A stretch of DNA of 64,000 bases from Pyropia yezoensis. Taxonomy: Eukaryota > Rhodophyta > Bangiophyceae > Bangiales > Bangiaceae. The notes beneath the pieces are model-generated. The model worked only from the letters and a program-made list of their open reading frames with translations, searched no databases and was not told the origin of the DNA. The stretch spans positions 28,670,063 through 28,734,062 of the forward strand of contig CM020619.1 of NCBI GenBank assembly GCA_009829735.1, read 5' to 3'. The position numbers were made by a program, and so were the translations under genes. Below, piece by piece: positions 40,883 through 62,628 of the stretch. Positions within the stretch are counted from its first letter, which is position 1, and every line of letters begins with the position of its first letter.

Positions 40883-41245
40883 TGTAGCAATATGGTTGGC
40901 CGTATTGTGACCCTATTATTAGGGGGGCTACTTCTAATCCTTGGCTTTCAAGTTGATAGTCCGTACTGGTCACGGTATCTATAAGTTACGTATGACCAGA
41001 GGGACTTGCATCTTGGGGTGGAGGGTAGTTAGTAGTGTCTCCGAGGGTTTATAACGTGGGGGCCGGCGGCGAATCCACCGCCGGCCAAGGTAGAACAACA
41101 AACCCCTCCCACTTGGGCTCCCATCTTGGTCCCGTGGCTTGCGCTCCAAGGACAGCAACCTTGGCCTCCCGGTGACGTTGGTGCCGATCCCCCTTGGTGA
41201 GTGTTCCCTGAGAGTGGACGTGCGACGGATCCCTATTGAGCTACA
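40883..41245 (+). repeat. LTR 1 (5' LTR of copy 1)
   Basis: Starts TGTAGCA; the matching end in the other LTRs is TGCTACA, an exact inverted pair, while here the end has one change (GAGCTACA). A GC hairpin (CCGGCGG...CCGCCGG) follows the TATA-like box. Confidence 0.95.
41048..41054 (+). promoter_or_regulatory. TATA-like box in the LTR
   Basis: TTTATAA about 165 bp into the LTR; the same heptamer is present in LTRs 2, 3 and 4. It is the likely core promoter for the gag-pol transcript, with the start expected near 41075-41085. Confidence 0.4.
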
Positions 41246-41246
41246 T

Positions 41247-41263
41247 TGGTGGAGCAGCAGGGG
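41247..41263 (+). other. Primer-binding site candidate, copy 1
   Basis: TGGTGGAGCAGCAGGGG one base after the 5' LTR. It begins with TGG, complementary to the universal tRNA CCA end; the tRNA cannot be named. The same sequence follows LTR 3. Confidence 0.7.
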
Positions 41264-41470
41264 ACGGGTTTCCGTCACCCTTGTGGTGACGCCGTCTTCG
41301 GCCCTGGCACACGGATAGGGATCCGGTCCTTTTCTTGTACTCGTGGTGTTGCGACCTGATCGATTGTGTTGAGCTCTTACCTGTGACTGTGATCTACTGT
41401 TACTCTCCCCAATCTACCCCCTCGCTCTCTTATTCGTGGTGATTGTTACGTCGGTTGACTGATTGTGACC

Positions 41471-43654
41471 ATGTCTACCCAAGAGACGGGGAACGTTCAA
41501 GATGACGGATCGGCGTCGACGCCGACTCCGGAGGTGACTACGGGAACCGAGATCGGGAACCCGATCGACAACATTGAGACGCCAATGCTCTCAGGTGCCG
41601 GATCGACGTTTGGCACGGCTCGGACGGCAGGAGGCGGGGGCCCGCCTCAACTGTCGTCGACCGACCTCACTCCGCCGCCTCCTTCACCAGGGGATTCCCT
41701 GATGGCATCATTGGCCCGCATCGAGGCCCGGTTTTCCGGACTCGACGCTCGCCAGGAGCGGACGGAGGACGCGATGGCAGTGTTGATGTCAACACGCCAC
41801 ACGACGGGACCCCGTCGTGTTCCTCCCACACCGGTACGGTTCGAACCGGCCGGACTACTTTCGGAGTCCACCAGGGTCAACCCCGGTGTTGCTACTCCTG
41901 GACAACCCCCGGACACAATGGGATATGGGTCCGACTCGTCGGCAGAGTTGGAACGGAGTCACACGGAGCGATACGCTCGGAGCACCCGAAGCGGACTCCG
42001 CGGACCCGACCCGGCGGATACTTACGCCGGTGGAGAGTCGGTTATTGGGGGAGGGGGTACCCTCTCACAGTATCCCCTCGACGACGAAAGCCAGGCAACT
42101 CGGGTTCCCGAGGTGCCGACGCCTGGAGTACCATCTTCAGTGGTGGAAGCTATGACCGCGCAGGTAACTGCGAGCCTACTGAAGCGGATGGAGTCGGATG
42201 AGTTTGCTCATCAACTGGCGAAGCGACTGGATATCCAGGACGCTGACACGGAGATCGTCAACGAGGTCTTCCGCTCGGTACTGACTCCCGAACGTTATCG
42301 TTTGGAGGACCGCTCTACCACCGTATCGGAATCGATGCGTAATACGTCGCATAGGGCGATCCGCTCTATGCAGACCCTTATGAAGGGAGTCCCTATGTTC
42401 GGAGGCCCCAACGGACGCCCGTTGGCAGTTATCGGCTTCTTGACTAGTTTCAAGGCAGCCGCGGACAAGGCCCTCGTTAACGAGGGGCTGGCGCTGGAGA
42501 TCCTCCCGTTCTTTGTTGATGAACGGGTGCGAGGCATTCTTCGCCAGGCATCCCCGATGCCGAGAATGAGGGTCGCGGCCACTCCCATGGATTACCGTGG
42601 GATCCTCAAGGAGCTGCTGAGCAGTTACCTCAGCGAGGACAAGTGCGAGGACCACTACCGGGCCCTTCGCACTGCCACCGCCCAGTCCTGGGAGGATGAG
42701 GACATGTTTGGACGCCGGATCCAAAAGCTCGACTACGAGCTGGGGAAGCTCCTCGGAGAAGGGGAGCTACGGGCCATCCTGTTCGCAGGAGTACCCAACT
42801 ACGTGCGGATATCCGCACGGGGCGCCAACACGGCACGGACGAACTTCAGTCGACTGATGCATATGTGCAAGTCCCTAGGGGACGCCTACCGGGTTCTACA
42901 CCCGGAGTGTGCCTTGGCCCCGAAGCCCAAGGGTGAGGGAGGCAAGCCCAGTCTTACCCCGGTACCGAGGCAAGAGAAGGTGGAACGTAAGGCCGCACCA
43001 GTACTGGTGGCGACCGAACATACCCCTACGGGCGAGGATGAACCTCTAGTTGACCAACAGGGCCACCTGTTGCTACCGGCGACGCCGGTGATTGATGAGC
43101 ACGGTACGGTAGCGTACATCGCCCCGGCTGGGACCCAGTTCCAGGTCAACGAGGTAGCGGGACGGCGCGTCCCGTATGTGCGGACGACGGGGTATGCCCC
43201 GGTTACGGGTAACCCCCACCAGCCCCTGCCTACATGGGCAGTACGTACGGAGGCACCTCCGCAGATTGCGGGCCGACCCAACCGGTTGGGGGAGTCCATG
43301 TTCCGGTTGACCGAAGGACCCAAGGCCTACCAGGGAGCAGGCACTCGGGCGCCCGAGGGAGGCAACCGCAGCTACGGGGCTACCCCGATGCGAACTCAAG
43401 GGGGAACCGGCACGTCCGGATGTATGTTGTGTGGGGATCCCCAGCACTGGGTGTCTTCCTGCCCACTCATCCCCGAGGAGTCTCGGCGGACAGCGGCGCA
43501 AGGCAAGGCATCCACCGGGGGGTATCCCGCCAGAGCACCCGGACCCGCACCGGGTAGGCAGCCAGCTCCAGGTGGAGTACTGGCCGTCGAGGAGGCACCT
43601 CCGCAGCCGGATGTCCCGGCGGACAGCACCCTACCAAGGGCGGGAAACGAGTAA
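41471..43654 (+). CDS. gag: gag, copy 1
   Basis: 727 residues from ATG 41471. Seen: a Thr/Pro/Gly-rich N-terminal 200 residues, a helical central region (about 220-470), and a CCHC zinc knuckle CMLCGDPQHWVSSC (Cys-X2-Cys-X4-His-X4-Cys) near the C-terminus, followed by a Pro/Ala/Gly-rich end. Known: Gag forms the particle and the knuckle binds element RNA. No stop or shift is seen in this copy. The stop is 8 bases before the pol ATG, which is in a different frame, so pol is not a simple fusion; reinitiation or frameshifting would be needed. Confidence 0.88.
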   Translation: MSTQETGNVQDDGSASTPTPEVTTGTEIGNPIDNIETPMLSGAGSTFGTARTAGGGGPPQLSSTDLTPPPPSPGDSLMASLARIEARFSGLDARQERTEDAMAVLMSTRHTTGPRRVPPTPVRFEPAGLLSESTRVNPGVATPGQPPDTMGYGSDSSAELERSHTERYARSTRSGLRGPDPADTYAGGESVIGGGGTLSQYPLDDESQATRVPEVPTPGVPSSVVEAMTAQVTASLLKRMESDEFAHQLAKRLDIQDADTEIVNEVFRSVLTPERYRLEDRSTTVSESMRNTSHRAIRSMQTLMKGVPMFGGPNGRPLAVIGFLTSFKAAADKALVNEGLALEILPFFVDERVRGILRQASPMPRMRVAATPMDYRGILKELLSSYLSEDKCEDHYRALRTATAQSWEDEDMFGRRIQKLDYELGKLLGEGELRAILFAGVPNYVRISARGANTARTNFSRLMHMCKSLGDAYRVLHPECALAPKPKGEGGKPSLTPVPRQEKVERKAAPVLVATEHTPTGEDEPLVDQQGHLLLPATPVIDEHGTVAYIAPAGTQFQVNEVAGRRVPYVRTTGYAPVTGNPHQPLPTWAVRTEAPPQIAGRPNRLGESMFRLTEGPKAYQGAGTRAPEGGNRSYGATPMRTQGGTGTSGCMLCGDPQHWVSSCPLIPEESRRTAAQGKASTGGYPARAPGPAPGRQPAPGGVLAVEEAPPQPDVPADSTLPRAGNE

Positions 43655-43662
43655 GAGGAAGG

Positions 43663-46600
43663 ATGACCGGGGGGCGCTGGGGTTACCCAAGCAAGCCACC
43701 CCGGAGTACCGCGGGGAAAGCCCCACGGAGAGCGCGGTTGAGCCGACGCCGCATCAACCCCCGGGTACACCTTCCGGCCCCGACGACACGGCGTCAGGGG
43801 ATTGATGACCAACCACCAAGGTTGGGAGGAGAGGACGGGAAGCCCCGTCACATGGAACCAGACAAGGGCCCTGTTCAGGATGCCCGAGCTACACCGGATA
43901 TCGGTGTAGGCCACGTGCTGTTTACCTTGGAGAACTTCAAGGTATCAGGCACACTGGGGGTTAACCCCCAGTCGACACGATCGTACTACCCTGTACTGGA
44001 TACAGGGGCTGGACCCAACCTTATCCGGAAGGATACCCTCCCGGACAAGTGGCTTCCGCGAGTCAGAGTGACTCGGGGACCCACCATCAAGGACGCGAAT
44101 GGTCGACTCATTCGTACGACCGCAGCGATGTCGCTGCGGGTTACCATCGGGGAACTCACCACGGAAGTCGACTTCCTGGTGTGTGAGACCCTATCGGTGC
44201 CCTGCATACTGGGGTGCACCTTCATCAACGTTCACGTTGATGCAATCCGGCCAGGCCGGAGGACCGTCGAGCTTCAAGAAGCCGACGGGACGAAGCGAGG
44301 ACATACAGCTATCGTCAGGGACCTGACGCTACAAGGGAGCCACGTTAACGTGGCTGAGGTGTACGCAAGCGTCGAGCCGAAGACACTTCGGGTGGCCAAG
44401 CGAACTCGCTTTGAGCCGTTGTCAGAGACAGTCCTCCCGGTTAACTGCGACCTCGCAGGCATCTGCAGAGTCCAGTCCAACTTGCGGACGTACAAGCGCC
44501 ATGGGTTGACCATGGCCAACGGTCTCATAGACCTCCCAGCAGGAGGGTCGTCCCTCCTAGTGATGGCGAATTATCGCCGTAAGGCAGTCACCCTCCCGAA
44601 GGGAACTATCCTCGGGATTGCCGAACTCTACGAAGGAGATATCCTTACCCCTGACAAGGAAGGTCAAGTGGAACCACTTGAGGTGCTGGCGGTCGCCGAG
44701 ACCACCGAGCGACAGCAACCCGATGACGGGAAGCCTAACCCATCGGCGGCTCCGGCGGACCTGCCGCCAAAGGACCAAGAGGCCTTGAAGGCACTGGCCG
44801 AGGCTGACCTCGACCACCTTCCCCCTTCGGTAGCCGAAGGGGTACGACGGATGCTAAGAAAGCATGACGTCATGTGGACAGGCGGGGCCTTGGGTACCAT
44901 TGGGGCAACCCAACATCGTATTGAACTGGTACCAGGCGCACGCCCCGCCCGGTCACAACCGCACCGAGCGGGACCTATGCAACGAGAGATCGTTGATGGA
45001 GAAGGGAAGAGGATGAGTGAAGCGAAGGTGATACGACCTTCGATGTCGGAGTGGGGTGCCCCAGTCGTTATCGTACCGAAGAAGGATCAAACCCCTCGGT
45101 TTTGCATCGATTATCGACGCCTCAACTTGGTTACCAAGAAGGACTCCTACCCTTTACCAAGGATGGATGAATGCATCGACTCCCTGGGGGAAGCTACGGT
45201 GTTTACCACCATCGACTGCAATGCCGGATACTGGCAGATCCCGGTGGCGGACGAGGATATCCCCAAGACGGCATTCGTCTGTCACAGTGGAGTGTACGAG
45301 TTCCTAAGGATGCCCTTCGGATTGTCCAATGCCCCCGCTACATTCCAGCGGGCTATCGACATTATACTGTCGGGGGTGAAGTGGCGTAACTGCCTAGTGT
45401 ACCTCGATGACGTCATCGTCTTCTCGCGTAACATGGATGACCATGTGCAACATATTGACGAGGTACTCAGCCTCTTGCGGAACGCCGGGGTAACCCTGCG
45501 TCTGAAGAAGTGCGCCTTCTTCCAACAGACGGTCGAGTATCTGGGCCACCAGATAACCCCTGGTAAACTAGGGGTACTCGAAGCCAATACCCGGGCACTC
45601 CGGGATGCCCGGTTCCCTAACACCCAGACACAGCTCAAGAGCTTCCTGGGAATGTGCAATGTATACCGACGGTTCGTCAAGGACTTCGCTCGGATAGCTA
45701 AACCGTTAACGGTTCTTACGAGCAGTACCCTGCCCAAGGTACTCCAACCCCCTTCGCCTAGCGAAGAGGAGGCATTCGAGTCGCTGAAGCGAGCCCTACT
45801 ATCCCCACCCGTCCTTGCGTTACCGCATAGACGGGGTACCTTCGTCATCGATGTCGATGCGTGCGACACCCAAGTGGGATGCACCCTGCTACAGGGGGAG
45901 ACGTTGATCGGTACCGATAACGTTATCCCGGACCTACGTCCGGTAGGATACTTCAGCCGGACACTCAACCCGGCTGAGCGTAACTATAGTGCCACCGAGC
46001 GTGAATGCCTCGGAGTTATATGGGCAGTGCAACTGCTCCGTCCATACCTGGAGGGTTCCAGGTTCATCGTGAGGTCCGACCACGAACCCCTACGATGGCT
46101 CCTCAACCTTGGTGACAAGGATTCCGATAGCCATGGGAGGCTAGCCCGATGGAGGCTAAAAATGGCCGAGCACGACTACCGTACCGTGTATAAGGCTGGG
46201 TCAACCCACCATCTCGGAGACGCATTGTCTCGACTCGACACCCCGAGCGGGGATACCCGCCCGGTGGACGAGGACATCCCGGTGGTACCGGTCTGCATGG
46301 TGGGTAACGCTACCCAGGGTATGGTTGACCATACCATGGCACACCTTGCGTGCCCATTGACCCTCGCGGACTTCCGCGAGGCACAGGCCAATGACGACGA
46401 CTGTAGACGTCATCGTGCTAACCTCCTGGCCGGTACGGCCGGCATCTTCTCCGAGAACGAAGACGGACTCATATACCGGCGGGCACCCGCCGATGGACGA
46501 CATCAAGTCGTGGTTCCCGTGTCCTTACGGCAAGCCGTCATGGAACGAGAACACGAGAACCCTACAGCCGGACACCCGGGGGGTTCACGTATGTTCGCAG

Positions 46601-47829
46601 CAATGCGAAAGTTCTTCTACTGGCCAGCAATGGCCGTCGACGTGGTCGACCACGTAAGGGGATGCCACCCCTGTGCGCATAACCGCATGAGTCTGCATAG
46701 GCAGGCGTCTGCCATGAAGCTATTCCCACCTGATGGGCCCAACGAGCAGGTCGCTATCGACATACTCGGGCCACTTCCGGTAACGGAAGAAGGGAACAGG
46801 TACATCCTGGTCATGTCTGACCGGTTCACTAAGCTGTCACGAGCGGCAGCCATCCCGAATGATACGGCATACACCATCATGAACGCAGTGGTTGACCACT
46901 GGATCAGTGCATACGGAGTCATGAAGCAACTCCTCTCCGACAACGGAGCAAACCTTACGTCGGCATTCTGCACTAAGGTCCTGGGCATGTTCGGTATCGA
47001 ACCACGTCGGGCATCCGACTACCACCCGCAAACCAACGGACAGGTGGAGCGGTTCAACCGCACCATCGTAAAGATGCTACAGTGCTACGTGGCCGAGCAC
47101 ACGAACACTTGGGACAGGCTTCTGTCCGTACTCACCCTGGCATACAATGCCAGGCCACATCGGAGCACAAACATCGCTCCGCTGGAGTGGGTCATGCCAT
47201 TAGGCGTCGGTAACCTGGCGCTGCCACCAGGCAGATGCACCCGGTATGATATACCGAAGGGCCGACCGGCCGAACGGATCCACTTAGCTTGGTAGGCCAA
47301 GCTATCGTGGATGATGCCCAAGCTCAAGGGTGCCCTTGACCGTACACAACTTCGATACAAGAAGAACTTCGACGCCCGGTTACGGGTGCGCAACGCAACC
47401 CTGGTAACAGGTGACTGGGTCTACATCAGACACCAGAAGATCCGAGGGAACAAGCTTATGCAACCGGTCAAGGGACCGCACCAGATCTTACACAGAGATG
47501 ATCACTCTGTAATCCTGCACTCCGACACGGAGATACAACGCATCAACCTCAATGATGTGACACCTGCTCCGAAGCCGGAACAGCCTCAGCCGGTACCAGC
47601 TGGGTTGCTACATGAAGCTCTTACAACCCACCGGTCAGAGGACCCGGTGGGACCGGATGGGATTCCATACCAAGTAGAGAGCGTGGTCGGACACACCGAC
47701 CCGGACCTACCAGGACCCTGGTACGTCAAGGTTATGTGGGTCGGATACGACTCACCCACCTGGGAACAGGCGGCAAATATACCCCGCCAACTCCTCATGC
47801 CTTACATGAGGCGACGACGCCTACTGTAA
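43663..47829 (+). pseudogene. pol: pol, copy 1 (nonsense codon between integrase and chromodomain)
   Basis: The frame from ATG 43663 holds, in order: an aspartic protease ([11 protein letters not shown]), reverse transcriptase ([34 protein letters not shown]), RNase H (FVIDVDACDTQVG, ATERECLGVIWA, VRSDHEPL), and integrase with the HHCC zinc site (H...GHPGG, GCHPCAHNR) and the D,D,E residues (VAIDILGPLP, LLSDNGANL, NGQVERFNR). A TAG at 47293-47295 ends it after 1210 codons. The same frame then continues to 47829 and contains the usual post-integrase region and a chromodomain-like C-terminus (YVKVMWVGYDSPTWEQ). Copy 2 has a sense codon at this spot. Order and residues are those of Ty3/gypsy chromoviruses. 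The enzymatic part is intact but the targeting module is cut off. Confidence 0.95.
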
Positions 47830-48284
47830 CAACCCAACCGACACCGACTTCGGCTGTTGGGGGGTCAGGCTTATACCTAATAAGTAGGGTGTGACATGGT
47901 TACGGCAGACTTAGGTTTCTAAGTCAAATCAGACTTAGGTTTCTAAGTCGAACCAAGCTTAGGCAACTAAGTAAAACCTGAACCTTAATAAGTTAACTTA
48001 AAGGTAAAGGCTAACTTCGATAATATCGAAGTAACTAGGGGGCTTACACGGGAGGATGACCTCCCAAAGCCAAGACACAAAGTGAGGGAGGATAACCTCC
48101 CCAAGCATGAACCAACCGGAAGAAGTTGGACGGGAGGCAAGGCACCACTGAGCCAGAAGGGGTACTCCCCAGGGCAGCAAACAGAGGCAAGCAATGCCCC
48201 CAGCGGGGGATGAGTTTACACTCACTACTACCCGGCCACCATAAGGGCCACCGGGTCCCTCTCCCGTACAGACAATAACACTCC
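47830..48284. other. Hairpin-rich region between convergent pol and antisense frames, copy 1
   Basis: Three short inverted repeats, each a stem around a 4-base loop: 47908-47925 and 47932-47949 (GACTTAG-GTTT-CTAAGTC) and 47958-47971 (CTTAG-GCAA-CTAAG). Further GGAGG...CCTCC hairpins lie near 48050-48095. The region sits exactly between the end of pol on plus and the end of the antisense frame on minus. Confidence 0.85.
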
Positions 48285-50654
48285 TCAGTGGGTAGACCCA
48301 CTGCCCGAGGGAGGCCACTCACGCGTAAGCGCGTATACCTCCGTGCTCCACCTGTCGGCAATGTCACGACGGTCGATCACCCGAGTTACCTCGGTGCATA
48401 GCTGGACGAGGGTGCTGCGGCCAGCCTCCACGTCCTCCAGAGCTTTCTGGAGGCGGTCAAGCACGCCACCGAAGCAACGCGCTGACCCAACTAGCGCGGC
48501 ACCTGGGGGGATATCCCCCCAGCTAACAGAGAGACCCTCCCGCATTGCGCGGGTAACAAGGGCGTCAACGCCCTCATACCAGAGACGGGGACCCCCGTCT
48601 TGTATGACAGGGGCGGGAGCGGACACTGGCGCAGCCAGAGGAGCCAGAGGAGCCGACACGGCTACCACAGGAGCCGGTGGCACCTGATACGAGGCTCGGT
48701 AGGACCCTACCGAAGGGGCTCCACCGTAACCCCGGCGGGGCTCCGCCCGACGACGGGACACCTCACGCTCCCCACCCGCAGAGCCCCACTCTCGGGGACG
48801 ACGGCCAACCGCCGCCGGTATCGGGTTACCGAACCACGGGGCAAGGACCTGAAGAGGGTCATGGATAACCATGGGAATACCCAGGTCAGCAACAGCCTCG
48901 GTGGATGCCCACCCATGGCAACTGGACTCACCCGGCTGAGTACGCCGGATACGCAACGAGTGACGAGGCAAGGGGGTAGCCCCAGCCTGCGGGTCCCGGT
49001 ACGGGGGAAGGGCCAACACCCCAAATCAGTTCACGGCATCGTGAACAGCCAGCAGGGCGTCGAACTCCCGGGCCAACCCGGTCTTGGCAGCTATCAGGTC
49101 CACGCCCAACTACGCGATGTGCCGACGGACACCCGTCGGAAGATGAAACAGGCGCCCCTGCCGTCGGACGGACAGCAAGAAGGAGGACGCCTGCCCGAGG
49201 GTAACCTCAAGGGTGAAGGTACCTTGCAACGGGTGGACCGGCCGGGAGGCCAACACACTCCCGAAGTATCGGAGACAAGGGCCGGTGTCAAACCGGAAAG
49301 CAGGGGCGGGTTCCCACCCCTACTGCCACAGAGGCGGGCGCACGGGAGTGTATACAGGCGCACGACCGTTGCCGGTCTGCAACGCACACGTTATATCGGT
49401 GCGGAACGCATCCGCCATGACACCATGGTTACGTCGCCAGCTCGACGCCGACTTCAAACCCGCCATAGGCGGGTAGGGAGCAGCCAACGACAGATACGGG
49501 GGTACCCCCGGGTAGTAGTCAAAGTCGGGATACCGACCGGTATCGCCCACCGTCTCCCCGAACGCAACCGGCGCCGCCGCCGCCGCAATCCCCCGAGCAC
49601 TAGCCGGGTAGTCAACCTCCCGCGGCAACGCGGGAGCAATCAGGTCGCATACCCCGAAGGCGGGGTCGAGGTAGACCTCACCTCGTCCCACCCGAGTACG
49701 CCAGAGCTGCGCATGCCGGTCGTCCGGCTGACTCAGGATCCAATGGTGTTCCACCCGGACCGCGTTCGGCTGGTTGACCAGCCGCACCAGCTCCCGCTCC
49801 CAACTCGGGTCCACCTTGACGCGCCGGGAGGACTCTCCACGGGGATGGGGCAGGTGGAAGTCCACCCGCATCCGCCCATCGGACTCCATTGACTATTGCA
49901 CAGTCAGGCCTCGAACCCGAGCCACCAAGTCGAACATCGACATGGCGGGTTGACCCGCCGCCACGGCGACGCCGCCACCCAACGGGGCAACCCGGGCAGG
50001 ACCAGGAAGAATAGGGGGCGCCAGGGGATGCCCCACCGGAAGAGGGGCCGGCGCCGGAGTCGCACGCGGCCGAGCAGGAAGAAGAAGGGCGGGCGCCCGC
50101 CCGGAGTAACTACCGGAGTCCACTGCCATCGGTGTAGACCCACCTTGACCGCCAGACGCCCGCGGCACCGCGGGCAGAGCAACGCCGCCACCCGAGCCCG
50201 ACGGGGGCACCTCGGGGGCAGCAGGGGTAGACCCGCCACCCGCCGCCGCGGATGAACCACCCGGGCGGGCACCCGCGCCGTCTTGACCCGCCGTCCCGGT
50301 CGGGGTGCCACCATAACCGCCCGACACGCCGGCGACGCCGTCTTGAGGTTGAGCCGCGCCGGCACCGGCGACAGAAGCCATCCGGGCCGCCGGAGGAGTA
50401 GGGGTAGACGCAGCAGCTACCCGCGGTTGCCCGCCACCCGACGGAGCCGTCGTGCCGCTGCACACGGACGACAAACCGCCCGGAGCACCGTCCGGGGCCA
50501 CACGAACGGTCACCCGGTCGTCCTCGTCCTCCGACGAGCTCGCTAGGAAGCACTCGGCGGCGGTGGCGGAGACGGGAACGTCGTCCACCATCACCTCTTC
50601 CCCCTCTTCAGGCAGGAGGTCGTCCTCGCCCCTGGGTACCTGGGGGTCGGACAT
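48285..50654 (-). pseudogene. Antisense reading frame (aORF), copy 1, unknown function
   Basis: From ATG 50654 to the stop at 48287-48285 one minus-strand frame of 790 codons runs without any indel but with three nonsense codons: TAG at 49895-49893, TAG at 49322-49320 and TGA at 49028-49026; copy 2 has GAG, GAG and TGG there. The predicted protein has an acidic N-terminus (GEDDLLPEEGEEVMVDD, then SSSEDEDD), a Pro/Gly/Ala-rich middle of about 200 residues, and a conserved, non-repetitive C-terminal 500 residues with Trp/Tyr/Arg-rich stretches (for example VEHHWILSQPDDRHAQLW). No family is recognised. It lies between pol and the 3' LTR and would need its own antisense promoter, expected between 50655 and 51240. 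Third-position-biased differences from copy 2 argue that it was a functional gene. Confidence 0.7.
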
Positions 50655-51240
50655 GGTGCAACCGGGGTGGCAGGGGCGCCCCTTGCAGAAAAGCCGAGGC
50701 CGGCTCGACCCGGTACAGAGAACGCTCGCACGGACGAGCCATGGAAGCGCGGGCACCCGCGCTTATGACCACACAGCTGGGCACGAGCGATACGGCAGCG
50801 CGGGACGACCCGCGCCAGCCGAGCTACGGGGGCGCTCCACCCAGGCACCTGGACCGGAGCCACGCCCCCCCACACGGGGTAAGCAAGGGGGGTCACCCCC
50901 AACCGCCCCCGCGCAACGCGGGCAGTTCCCGCCCCCACTCAATCGTCCACACGAGAGGGGCCCCCCTACCACCAGGCACCTGGTGGCGGATCTGCTTGCA
51001 CCACCCCTCGGAAAGGGGGGTCGTGAACAGAACCCGCATCGGGAATTTAACGGTCCGGAAAACGGATCGTGTGTGTACCACACAAAGGGGGGCACCCCCC
51101 TCAGACAACCTCGAAAAGGGGTGTCTGTCGCGACGGGGCGCAAAGCCCCACCCGACGGGTAAACAGTCACGCGACCCACTTACATTCGGTAACCCGAATG
51201 CAACTCGACCCGAGGACGGGCCGAATCTAAGGGGGGGATA
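50655..51240. other. Leader/promoter side of the aORF and 3' untranslated part of copy 1
   Basis: No sense gene. It contains several C-rich/G-rich hairpins and the inverted pair CATTCGG...CCGAATG (51184-51200) shortly before the polypurine tract. It is the only place where an aORF promoter could lie outside the LTR. Confidence 0.5.
51229..51240 (+). other. Polypurine tract, copy 1
   Basis: AAGGGGGGGATA directly before the 3' LTR; it primes plus-strand DNA synthesis in LTR elements. Copy 2 has the same tract one G shorter. Confidence 0.8.
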
Positions 51241-51603
51241 TGTAGCAATATGGTTGTCCGTATTGTGACCCTAATATTAGGGGGGCTACTTCTAATCCTT
51301 GGCTTTCAAGTTGATAGTCCGTACTGGTCACGGTATCTATAAGTTACGTATGACCAGAGGGACTTGCATCTTGGGGTGGAGGGTAGTTAGTAGTGTCTCC
51401 GAGGGTTTATAACGTGGGGGCCGGCGGCGAATCCACCGCCGGCCAAGGTAGAACAACAAACCCCTCCCATTTGGGCTCCCATCTTGGTCCCGTGGCTTGC
51501 GCTCCAAGGACAGCAACCTTGGCCTCCCGGTGACGTTGGTGCCGATCCCCCTTGGTGAGTGTTCCCTGAGAGTGGACGTGCGACGGATCCCTATTGTGCT
51601 ACA
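51241..51603 (+). repeat. LTR 2 (3' LTR of copy 1)
   Basis: TGTAGCA...TGCTACA, 363 bp. It shares with LTR 1 the block CCTTGGCTTTCAAGTTGATAG that is different in LTRs 3-5. Confidence 0.96.
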
Positions 51604-51663
51604 CCCACGCTGGGGAGGCCACCCGTATACCCACGATCCGAGTCCCCCTCAACTCGAGGCGGG
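51604..51663. repeat. 60-bp inter-element spacer, first copy
   Basis: Begins CCCAC (target-site repeat of copy 1) and ends GCGGG. The same sequence, one C shorter, recurs at 62474-62532 between copies 2 and 3. Confidence 0.95.
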
Positions 51664-59087: not shown

Positions 59088-61532
59088 TCAGTGGGTAGAC
59101 CCACTGCCCGAGGGAGGCCACTCACGCGTAAGCGCGTAGACCTCCGTGCTCCACCTGTCGGCAACGTCACGACGGTCGACCACCCGAGTTACCTCGGTGC
59201 ATAGCTGGACGAGGGTGCTGCGGCCAGCCTCCACGTCCTCCAGAGCTTTCTGGAGGCGGTCCAGCACGCCACCGAAGCAACGCGCTGACCCAACCAGCGC
59301 AGCACCTGGGGGGATATCCCCCCAGCTAACAGAGAGACCCCCACGCATTGCGCGGGTAACAAGGGCGTCAACGCCATCATACCAGAGACGGGGACCCCCG
59401 TCTTGTATGACAGGGGCGGGAGCTGACACTGGCGCAGCCAGAGGAGCCACAGGAGCCGACACGGCTACCACCGGAGCCGGTGGCACCTGATACGAGGCCC
59501 GGTAGGACCCTACCGAAGGGGCTCCACCGTAACCACGGCGGTACTCCGCCCGACGACGGGACACCTCACGCTCCCCACCCACAGAGCCCCACTCTCGGGG
59601 ACGACGGCCAACCGCCGCCGGCATCGGATTACCGAACCACGGAGCAAGGACCTGAAGAGGGTCATGGATAACCATGGGAATACCCAGGTCAGCAACAGCC
59701 TCGGTGGATGCCCACCCATGGCAACTGGGCTCACCCGGCTGAGTACGCCGGACACGCAACGAGTGACGAGGCAAGGGGGAAGCCCCAGCCTGCGGGTCCC
59801 GGTACGGGGGAAGGGCCAACACCCCAGTCCAGTTCACGGCATCGTGAACAGCCAGCAGGGCTTCGAACTCCCGGGCCAACCCGGTCTTGGCGGCTATCAG
59901 ATCCACGCCCAACTGCGCGATGTGCCGACGGACACCCGTCGGAAGATGAAACAGACGACCCTGCCGGCGGACGGACAGCAAGAAGGATGAAGCCTGCCCG
60001 AGGGTAACCTCAAGGGTGAAGGTACCCTGCAACGGGTGGACCGGTCGCGAGGCCAACACACTCCCGAAGTAGCGAAGACAGGAGCCGGTGTCAAACCGGA
60101 AAGCAGGGGCGGGTTCCCACCCCTCCTGCCATAGCGGCGGGCGCACGGGAGTGTGTACCGGAGCACGACCGTTGCCGGTCTGCAACGCACACGTTATATC
60201 CGTGCGGAACGCATCCGCCATGACACCATGGTTACGTCGCCAACTCGACGCCGACTTCAACCCGCCATGGGCGGGTAGGGAGCCGTCAACGACAGATACG
60301 GGGGTACCCCCGGGTAGTAGTCAAAGTCGGGATACCGACCGGTACTGCCCACCGTCTCCCCAAACGCAACCGGCTCCGCCGCCGCCGCAATCCCCCGAGC
60401 ACTAGCCGGGTAGTCAATCTCCCGCGGCAACGCGGGGGCAATCAGGTCGCAGACCCCGAAGTTGGGGTCGAGGTAGACCTCACCCCGTCCCACCCGTGTG
60501 CGCCAGAGCTGCGCATGCCGGTCGTCCGGCTGACTCAGGATCCAATGATGTTCCACCCGGACCGCGTTCGGCTGGTTGACCAGCCGCACCAACTCCCGCT
60601 CCCAGCTCGGGTCACCTTAACGCGGCGGGAGGACGCTCCACGGGGATGCACCAGGTGGAAGTCCACCCGCATACGCCCATCGGACTCCATCGACTCTTGC
60701 ACCGTGAGGCCTCGAACCCGAGCCACCAAGTCGGACACCGCCATGGCGGGTTGACCCGCCGCCACGGCGACGCCGCCACCCAACGGGGCAACCCGGGCAG
60801 GACCAGGAAGAATCGGGGGCGCCGGGGGACGCACCACCGGCAGAGGGGCCGACGTCGGAGATGGACGAGGCCGAGGAGGAAGAAGAAGGGCGGGCGCCCG
60901 CCGGAGTAACTCCCGGTGTCAACCGCCATGGGAGAAGGAGCGTCTTGACCGCTCGACACCCGCGGCACCGCAGGTCTGGTACCGGCGCCGGCACCACCCG
61001 TCGGCGTAGCCCCCGCTCGGAAGGGGAAGGCACTTGGACAGCCTCCGGAGCCGGAGCCCCGGCCGTGCGGACACCCGCACCGTCTTGACCCGCCGCACCG
61101 GGTGTCGCACCGCCACCACCACCCGCGTCAACGTCGGGACCGCCTCGAGGAGTCACCGCCCGGACACCCGGACCACCTTGACCAGCCGGAGTCGGCTGCG
61201 GGTCGCCACCTCCGCCGCAGGGCGGACCATCTTGGGGTAGCTGCGGTGAGCCGGCACCGGCACCAGGCTCCATCCGGGCAGCCGTCAGAGGGGGGGTAGA
61301 AGCCGCCACGCGCGGTTGACCGCCGGGTTGACCTCCGGCCGACGGCACCGTCGTGCCGCTGCACCACGGACGACAGTCCTCCGGCCGACAGACGGACGGA
61401 CACAGCAGGCGCGTCGTCGTCAGACGAGCTCACCCCGTAACGCGCGGCGTCGGGACCGACAGGCGCGTCGTCCTCCATCTCCTCCCCGATCAGGAGGTCT
61501 TCCTCCTCTTCAAGCACCTGGGGATAGGACAT
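59088..61532 (-). pseudogene. Antisense reading frame (aORF), copy 2, with frameshifts
   Basis: Counterpart of the copy 1 frame, from ATG 61532 (MSYPQVLEEEEDLL) to the stop at 59090-59088. Its last 390 codons (60260-59088) are open and align with copy 1 without gaps. Further upstream at least four single-base differences change the frame (near 61360, between about 60970 and 60840, near 60623 and near 60262). The acidic N-terminus and the Pro/Gly/Ala-rich middle differ strongly from copy 1 while the C-terminal part is conserved. The nonsense codons of copy 1 are absent. Several shifts are one-base losses in short runs and could be consensus errors. Confidence 0.65.
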
Positions 61533-62112
61533 GATAACGGGTGCGGAGTCCCCCGCGCCCACAAGCCGTCGACGGCTACGACCCGGTACGGTGGGTTAAC
61601 CGGGACGAGCCAGGGAAGCGCGGGCACCCGCGCTTATGACCACAAACGGCCACGAGAAGCGCCGCAGGCACGCGGGTCGACCCGCGCCCCACGGGGCTAC
61701 GACCGCGCTCCACCCAGGCACCTGGGCGGGACGGGGCCACACCCACACACAGGGTAAGCAAGGGGGTCACCCCCAACCCGCCCCACGCAACGCGGGCAGC
61801 CCCCGCCCCCCACTCAATCGTCCACACGAGAGGGACCCCCCTACCACCAGGCACCTGGTGGCGGATCCGCTTGCACCACCCCTCGGAAAGGGGGTCGTGA
61901 ACAAAAACCCGCATCGGGAAATTAACGGTCCGGAAAACGGATCGTGTGTGTACCACACAAAGGGGGGCACCCCCCTCGGACAACCTCGTAAAGGGGTGTC
62001 TGTCGCGACGGGGCGCAAAGCCCCACCGACGGGTAAACAGTCACGCGACCCACTTACATTCGGTAACCCGAATGCAACTCGACCGAGGACGGGCCGAATC
62101 TAAGGGGGGATA
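61533..62112. other. aORF leader side and 3' untranslated part of copy 2
   Basis: Matches 50655-51240 of copy 1 with several one-base losses in C and G runs. No sense gene. It ends in the polypurine tract AAGGGGGGATA (62102-62112). Confidence 0.6.
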
Positions 62113-62473: not shown

Positions 62474-62532
62474 CCCACGCTGGGGAGGCCACCCGTATAC
62501 CCACGATCCGAGTCCCCTCAACTCGAGGCGGG
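62474..62532. repeat. Inter-element spacer, second copy (59 bp)
   Basis: Same as 51604-51663 except for one C less in a C-run. It begins CCCAC and ends GCGGG. Confidence 0.95.
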
Positions 62533-62628
62533 TGTAGCAATATGGTTGTCCGTATTGTGACCCTAATATCAGGGGGCTACTTCTAATCCTTAACTTCAAT
62601 TTGAGAGTCCGAGCTGGTCACGGTATCT
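62533..62628 (+). repeat. LTR 5 (5' LTR of copy 3), first 96 bp
   Basis: LTR 3-type sequence, cut by the assembly gap. Confidence 0.93.

What the first reader, a model, noticed from the sequence alone, without database searches (positions are those of the whole stretch)
48285..50654. A long antisense gene inside an algal Ty3/gypsy element, with codon-position evidence of selection
A minus-strand frame of 790 codons sits between pol and the 3' LTR. By eye, over 48285-48850 versus 59088-59653 there are about 20 substitutions and no indels; 13 fall at third positions of the antisense frame, 4 at first and 3 at second, and several of the first/second changes are conservative (Ile/Val, Leu/Val). 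That is the footprint of purifying selection on the antisense protein. Some plant Ty3/gypsy elements are known to carry extra, sometimes antisense, frames downstream of pol, but I recognise no relative of this one. With an acidic N-terminus, disordered Pro/Gly middle and conserved C-terminus it could be a regulator of the element or of the host.
Basis: partly seen in the sequence, partly recalled or inferred. Interest (0 to 1): 0.88.

Follow-up and report, generated by a model that had tools for sequence, protein, structure and literature searches.

The report
Antisense gene in nori retrotransposons
A jumping-gene family abundant in a red seaweed genome carries a third gene written backwards behind its enzyme gene, and selection has kept its protein intact as the element multiplied, although the protein resembles nothing known and its job is unknown.

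Summary
The antisense frame is a real, selected protein gene, although the window's own copy is broken (four in-frame stops). Of 40 placed copies, 27 are open end to end. In 36 gap-free copies, private variants look neutral (101/106/106; ratio 0.93) and shared ones purified (51/52/110; ratio 0.49; 0 of 1000 shuffles reach the synonymous count). Diverged families give dN/dS 0.25-0.37. Relatives at 45-53% identity are annotated as hypothetical proteins in Pyropia vietnamensis. In 29 of 29 testable pairs the gene lies tail-to-tail with pol. No informative domain or structure match was found; the AlphaFold model is useless (pLDDT 28.5). Antisense genes at this place are known in plant Retand/Grande elements and fungal Boty; this is an unrelated-looking protein family in red algae. 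The two window copies carry different leader and N-terminal modules (A and B types), evidence of exchange between families. Most likely a nuclear regulator of the element; expression and function are untested.

The parts
40883..41245 (+). 5' LTR, 363 bp, TG...CA ends
   Evidence: Direct repeat with 51241-51603, 98.9% identical
41471..43654 (+). gag-position frame, 727 aa
   Evidence: Open frame; only a weak zinc-knuckle match, E 0.073, below cut-off
43663..47829 (+). pol: RT, RNase H and integrase; protease-like and chromodomain-like parts weak; one stop codon at 47293-47295 in this copy
   Evidence: Pfam RVT_1 3.7e-36, RT_RNaseH 2.1e-29, Integrase_H2C2 2.4e-16, rve 1.2e-08 above cut-off; gag-asp_proteas below cut-off; Chromo E 0.031 below cut-off and not listed for the open pol of L041
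47830..48284 (.). 455-bp spacer between the two convergent genes, with an AT-rich structured stretch at 47895-48040
   Evidence: 91-95% identical between families A, B and D; folding z -5.8 (+) and -5.0 (-)
48285..50654 (-). antisense accessory gene, 789 aa in open copies; broken by four stops here
50655..51240 (-). leader between antisense start codon and 3' LTR; putative promoter or cis-target region (inferred). Its proximal part differs between families A and B
   Evidence: Position; identity profile
51241..51603 (+). 3' LTR; holds TATAAA on the minus strand, first base 51411, as a possible antisense promoter motif
59088..61453 (-). second window copy of the antisense gene, frameshifted, B type; the upper end is approximate
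   Evidence: 97.4% identical to B-type L041 over 60600-62109 against 79-82% to A-type copies; frames -3, -1, -2 in tblastn

Best explanation
The frame is a protein-coding accessory gene of a Ty3/gypsy-type LTR retrotransposon in a bangiophyte red alga, placed antisense between pol and the 3' LTR. Shown: it is open in most copies scored; purifying selection acts on variants shared between copies but not detectably on private ones; it recurs tail-to-tail with pol in several diverged families; related proteins exist in Pyropia vietnamensis. Inferred: it is transcribed from a promoter in the 3' LTR or the leader. The 789-aa protein (acidic N-terminus, Pro/Gly/Ala-rich middle, conserved core, Arg-rich stretch, C-terminal part) then acts in the nucleus to regulate expression, silencing or integration of the element. 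It would work in the style of the antisense proteins of plant Grande/Retand elements or HBZ of HTLV-1, without sequence relation to them.
For: Private variants 313 sites, 101/106/106, ratio 0.93; shared variants 213 sites, 51/52/110, ratio 0.49, 0 of 1000 shuffles reaching the synonymous count. dN/dS 0.25-0.37 between families A-D, dS up to about 0.85; core 0.18-0.26 in A/B, A/C and A/D. 29 of 29 gene/pol pairs on opposite strands, 405-540 bp apart. Relatives at 45-53% in P. vietnamensis. 1-60 hold 17 acidic and 2 basic residues; Arg-rich RRPR and RRRAEPRR at 618 and 634. [quoted passage not shown]
Against: No transcript or protein evidence was available. No domain or fold supports a regulator. 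The middle, codons 61-240, is nearly neutral within family A (0.81) and the tail weak (0.68; close pairs 0.53-1.07). Selection is weaker than on pol (shared ratio 0.14 in 13 copies). Nuclear role and promoter are analogy.
Confidence: 0.5

Rival explanations
1. The protein is a silencing suppressor: it binds the element's own leader or LTR and counteracts host silencing, as VANC proteins do for VANDAL transposons (recalled). Protein and target co-diversify, which would explain exchange of leader and N-terminal part together.
For: Leader and N-terminal part differ together between A and B on an otherwise 91-98% identical background; the two window copies carry the two types. The element is very abundant.
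Against: Binding, methylation and small RNAs were not testable. Few exchange events were seen, which ordinary recombination explains as well; D's leader was not read.
Confidence: 0.2
2. The protein is a structural or transport part of the particle or pre-integration complex (second capsid-like or nucleic-acid-binding protein), expressed from the opposite strand.
For: Large conserved core and Arg-rich stretch; the gag frame has only a weak zinc knuckle.
Against: No similarity to the element's gag (E 0.75 at best); no fold information. A structural protein would be expected on the genomic sense RNA (reasoning).
Confidence: 0.15
3. The open frame is a by-product; the function lies in the antisense RNA or in a sense-strand frame.
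For: Convergent genes could give overlapping RNAs; antisense non-coding RNAs are reported for other elements (PMC7264820). The structured spacer and its conservation are non-coding.
Against: Selection follows the antisense codons and only in shared variants. The wobble-sharing sense frame has a ratio of 0.52 but 19-22 stops. Relatives keep the protein at 45-53% identity.
Confidence: 0.03
4. It is an env-like gene in the env position, turned round.
For: It lies between pol and the 3' LTR.
Against: Antisense; no convincing membrane segment: the best 19-residue hydropathy window is 1.65 and holds four prolines.
Confidence: 0.03
5. It is a host gene captured by the element.
For: Capture by LTR elements is documented (PMC7264820, PMC11963269, parts read).
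Against: No cellular relative was found, but the homologue searches scored only the 8000 candidates sharing most words, so an ancient capture stays possible. The gene is present in several families, always antisense where pol is known.
Confidence: 0.07

Closest known systems
Antisense ORFs between pol and 3' LTR of plant Retand-lineage elements (Grande gene23, RIRE2, Retand; Transposase_28/TRP28, PF04195)
   Same: Position and orientation; long pol-3'LTR region; present in most copies; function unknown (PMC11963269 parts 1-3 of 5; PMC7264820 parts 1-2 of 3).
   Different: No PF04195 match at E up to 1; red alga instead of flowering plant; pol end looks chromodomain-like, whereas Retand is non-chromovirus. 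RT phylogeny not done.
brtn, antisense gene of Boty-like elements of Botrytis cinerea
   Same: Additional antisense gene of a gypsy-type element outside plants; listed among antisense ORFs between pol and 3' LTR (PMC7264820; title of Zhao et al. 2011 seen only as a reference).
   Different: Sequence not compared here; fungal host.
HBZ of HTLV-1 and related antisense retroviral genes
   Same: Antisense gene in the 3' part of a retroelement (PMC11963269); acidic N-terminal part in HBZ (recalled).
   Different: HBZ has a bZIP domain (recalled); no curated Pfam match for this protein. Resemblance of arrangement only.
VANC anti-silencing proteins of VANDAL DNA transposons (recalled)
   Same: Possible co-variation of protein and cis region (inferred).
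   Different: Different transposon class; no sequence or functional test.

Membership tests
Antisense additional ORF between pol and 3' LTR (aORF-3R, a positional class) | Coding frame antisense to gag-pol, between pol and 3' LTR | tested here: met
   Window anatomy; L041; 29 of 29 pairs opposite to pol
Antisense additional ORF between pol and 3' LTR (aORF-3R, a positional class) | Kept in most copies with conservation of the protein | tested here: met
   27 of 40 placed copies open, from a best-scoring list; selection
Antisense additional ORF between pol and 3' LTR (aORF-3R, a positional class) | Antisense transcript | not testable with these tools
   No RNA data at hand
Retand lineage | TRP28 (PF04195) in the antisense ORF (97% of clusters in PMC11963269) | tested here: not met
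   No Pfam family at E up to 1 in L003, L041, P0005, P0011 frames; the genome-wide PF04195 scan was silent in its controls too and proves nothing
Retand lineage | RT clusters with Retand | not tested
Chromovirus | Chromodomain at the integrase C-terminus | tested here: inconclusive
   Pfam Chromo E 0.031, 14.7 bits against cut-off 25.1, in the 172-aa pol end; not listed at E up to 1 in the full pol of L041; likeness by eye
Chromovirus | RT clusters with chromoviruses | not tested
   No tree made
HBZ-like retroviral antisense protein | bZIP domain (recalled) | tested here: not met
   No Pfam family at E up to 1 in the frame
HBZ-like retroviral antisense protein | Promoter in the 3' LTR | not testable with these tools
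   Only a TATAAA motif at 51411 on the minus strand
Env-like protein | Transmembrane segment | tested here: not met
   Hydropathy only, best window 1.65, proline-rich

The most novel reading that the evidence does not exclude
The antisense gene is an exchangeable regulatory cassette. Families swap the proximal leader plus N-terminal part as one module, and families with a 91-95% identical spacer carry antisense cores only 66-84% identical. Protein and cis-target would co-evolve in an arms race with host silencing, making this a red-algal, retrotransposon-borne counterpart of transposon anti-silencing systems.
Probability: 0.18. Interest if true: 0.82.

Novelty: new variant of a known kind. Interest (0 to 1): 0.6.

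Why it matters
The two papers read in part describe antisense accessory genes of LTR retrotransposons mainly from flowering plants, with one fungal example, and call their function unknown. A red-algal family of unrelated-looking sequence, with selection measured on many copies, suggests that the arrangement persists because it serves the element. The contrast of private with shared variants is a simple test that can be applied to other such frames. It also matters for annotation: members are listed as hypothetical proteins in Pyropia vietnamensis.

Tried and rejected
Sense-strand explanation of the third-position bias: rejected. A broken but amplified family D: one search lists 3 TGA in many copies, but in L044, the one such copy read, the TGAs lie beyond the gene's own stop, leaving one TAG inside. 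A deleted third element in the window: not claimed, because a run of N lies there. Relation to gag: none. Phages, viral contigs, PHROGs, NCBIfam, PDB: nothing; plasmids, E. coli genomes, prokaryote contigs and PADLOC were not searched. One of eight relatives matched DUF6214 at E 0.014, taken as chance. Structure: mean pLDDT 28.5, so no fold search was run; a second job (alignment A3) was never accepted. PF04195 genome scan: controls silent, not used.

Literature: ten searches were answered. No listed title described an antisense gene in a red-algal LTR element; most subscription journals are not held, so this does not show absence from print. Seen: PMC11963269 parts 1-3 of 5; PMC7264820 parts 1-2 of 3; passages of PMC7423979, PMC12477816, PMC8282616 and PMC8365987; all others as listings.

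Full report
What is there. Window 40883-51603 is one LTR retrotransposon: LTRs of 363 bp, 98.9% identical; a gag-position frame 41471-43654; pol 43663-47829 with RT, RNase H and integrase domains above Pfam cut-offs; then 3.4 kb to the 3' LTR. The antisense frame 48285-50654 fills most of that stretch. In this copy it carries four in-frame stops, and pol carries one at 47293-47295.

Genome. The window lies in a 107.5-Mb assembly of 11 contigs, three of 43.6, 34.3 and 29.4 Mb. Named protein relatives come from Pyropia vietnamensis: five at 45-53% identity and a sixth at 39% over a third of the query. Two unnamed clusters are 90-94% identical, and another is 47%. I take the host to be Neopyropia (Pyropia) yezoensis. 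That it has three chromosomes is recalled, and no tool named the host. The published P. yezoensis genome is 48.0% repeats, LTR retrotransposons predominant (PMC7423979, passage).

The frame in other copies. A DNA search scored 40 of 1,123 candidates, the window's own copy included; the other 39 are 96-98% identical by rounded values. Of the 40, 27 are open end to end, 11 have internal stops and 2 are frameshifted. A protein search scored 57 of 33,955 candidates, 43 without stops. Scored candidates are the best ones, so these are not family-wide fractions.

The larger test used 36 of the 40 copies (four dropped because their aligned length differed), L003 as reference and biallelic sites only; about 68 of 594 variable sites, mostly with three bases, were left out. 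Private sites, 313, fall 101/106/106 on codon positions, with 95 synonymous against 91.0 expected from context-matched relocation. Shared sites, 213, fall 51/52/110, with 108 synonymous against 71.0 expected; 0 of 1000 shuffles reach that. The reading is that private variants arose mostly after insertion, whereas shared ones passed through transposition and were filtered. Shared-variant ratios by region are 0.34 (codons 1-60, 19 sites), 0.81 (61-240), 0.38 (241-640) and 0.68 (641-790). Other frames give 1.3-1.7, except the sense frame with the same wobble positions (0.52), which has 19-22 stops in each of 12 copies checked. In one search (per-column majority) pol gives 0.14 for shared and 0.58 for private variants in 13 copies, so private variants there are not neutral. 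The spacer (three sense frames) gives 0.70-1.47 and 50762-51230 (three antisense frames) 0.84-1.23 for shared variants.

Selection between families. Natural copies of four families (A L003 and L031, B L041 and L045, C L043, D L044 first open piece) give NG86 dN/dS between 0.25 and 0.37: for example 0.36 (A/B), 0.33 (A/C; dS 0.84; 64% amino-acid identity), 0.26 (A/D), 0.32 (B/C). Core values (codons 241-640) are 0.21, 0.26 and 0.18 for A/B, A/C and A/D. Codons 641-789 are weak in close pairs (0.53-1.07) but 0.32 in A/C.

Anatomy is general. No place is common, so the genome holds several families. Whether the gene is antisense to pol in P. vietnamensis could not be seen.

Protein. Residues 1-60 hold 17 acidic and 2 basic residues; 61-250 are 71% Pro/Gly/Ala/Ser/Thr; basic stretches RRPR and RRRAEPRR lie at 618 and 634. 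No match in Pfam, NCBIfam, PHROGs or PDB for L003's protein, nor in Pfam for L041's, P0005 and P0011; one of eight relatives gave DUF6214 at E 0.014. The three homologue searches scored only the 8000 candidates sharing most words, so distant relatives may be missed. The AlphaFold model of the P. vietnamensis relative, nine sequences deep, has mean pLDDT 28.5: no fold can be inferred.

Mosaic structure. In 150-nt windows A (L003) and B (L041) are 91-98% identical in the distal leader, codons 201 to the end, spacer and pol end, but 59-82% from about -300 to codon 200. B and D are 89-95% identical over codons 51-200 and 66-84% from codon 201 to the stop. D is again 90-95% identical to A and B beyond the gene. 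Pol dS between A and B is 0.07-0.12 in three comparisons, while the N-terminal parts have dS 0.45-0.98. So proximal leader and N-terminal part were exchanged together at least once; D's leader was not read, so its source is only suggested. The window shows both types: copy 1 is A, copy 2 is 97.4% identical to L041 over 60600-62109 against 79-82% to A copies. D's pol C-end (79 codons) has dS 0.40 against A, about half that of its antisense core (0.82). The 91-95% identical spacer is therefore under constraint or a recombination patch.

Mechanism. Shown: a coding gene under selection. Inferred: antisense transcription and a regulatory, probably nuclear, role, by analogy with Grande gene23 (PMC7264820) and from composition. 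A silencing suppressor and a particle component remain open.

Known or new. Antisense genes at this place are established for the plant Retand lineage (PMC11963269) and cited for Boty of Botrytis. The red-algal protein fails the TRP28 test, the chromodomain test is inconclusive and RT placement was not done. I file it as a new variant of a known kind: an unrelated-looking protein family in a new host group.

Noticed in passing
51604-51663 and about 62475-62533; L046 2513-2569: Neighbouring elements form an array: LTR pairs are separated by the same spacer of about 60 bp. The antisense genes alternate in type: copy 1 A, copy 2 B, copy 3 nearly identical to copy 1 (99.3%).
   Followed up: partly
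G000 C2:9880067-9892399: Four antisense-gene matches at an exact 3,489-bp spacing, suggesting a short tandem array without a full gag-pol between the genes; the sequence could not be fetched.
   Followed up: no
47895-48040: AT-rich (37% GC) stretch between the convergent genes with two perfect GACTTAG-GTTT-CTAAGTC hairpins; folds better than 200 of 200 shuffles on either strand. The hairpin pattern is present in 42 of 48 sequences scanned; L043 and L046 do not reach it. Possibly a two-way terminator (guess).
   Followed up: partly
48600-49892: A 430-codon sense-strand open frame mirrors the antisense gene; its shared-variant ratio is above 1, so it looks like a by-product.
   Followed up: yes
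Pyropia vietnamensis MMPV_009242, 008948, 008454, 001347, 008444, 009450: Proteins of this transposon gene stand in a public annotation as hypothetical proteins; the shorter ones lack inner stretches, which looks like artificial exon prediction.
   Followed up: no
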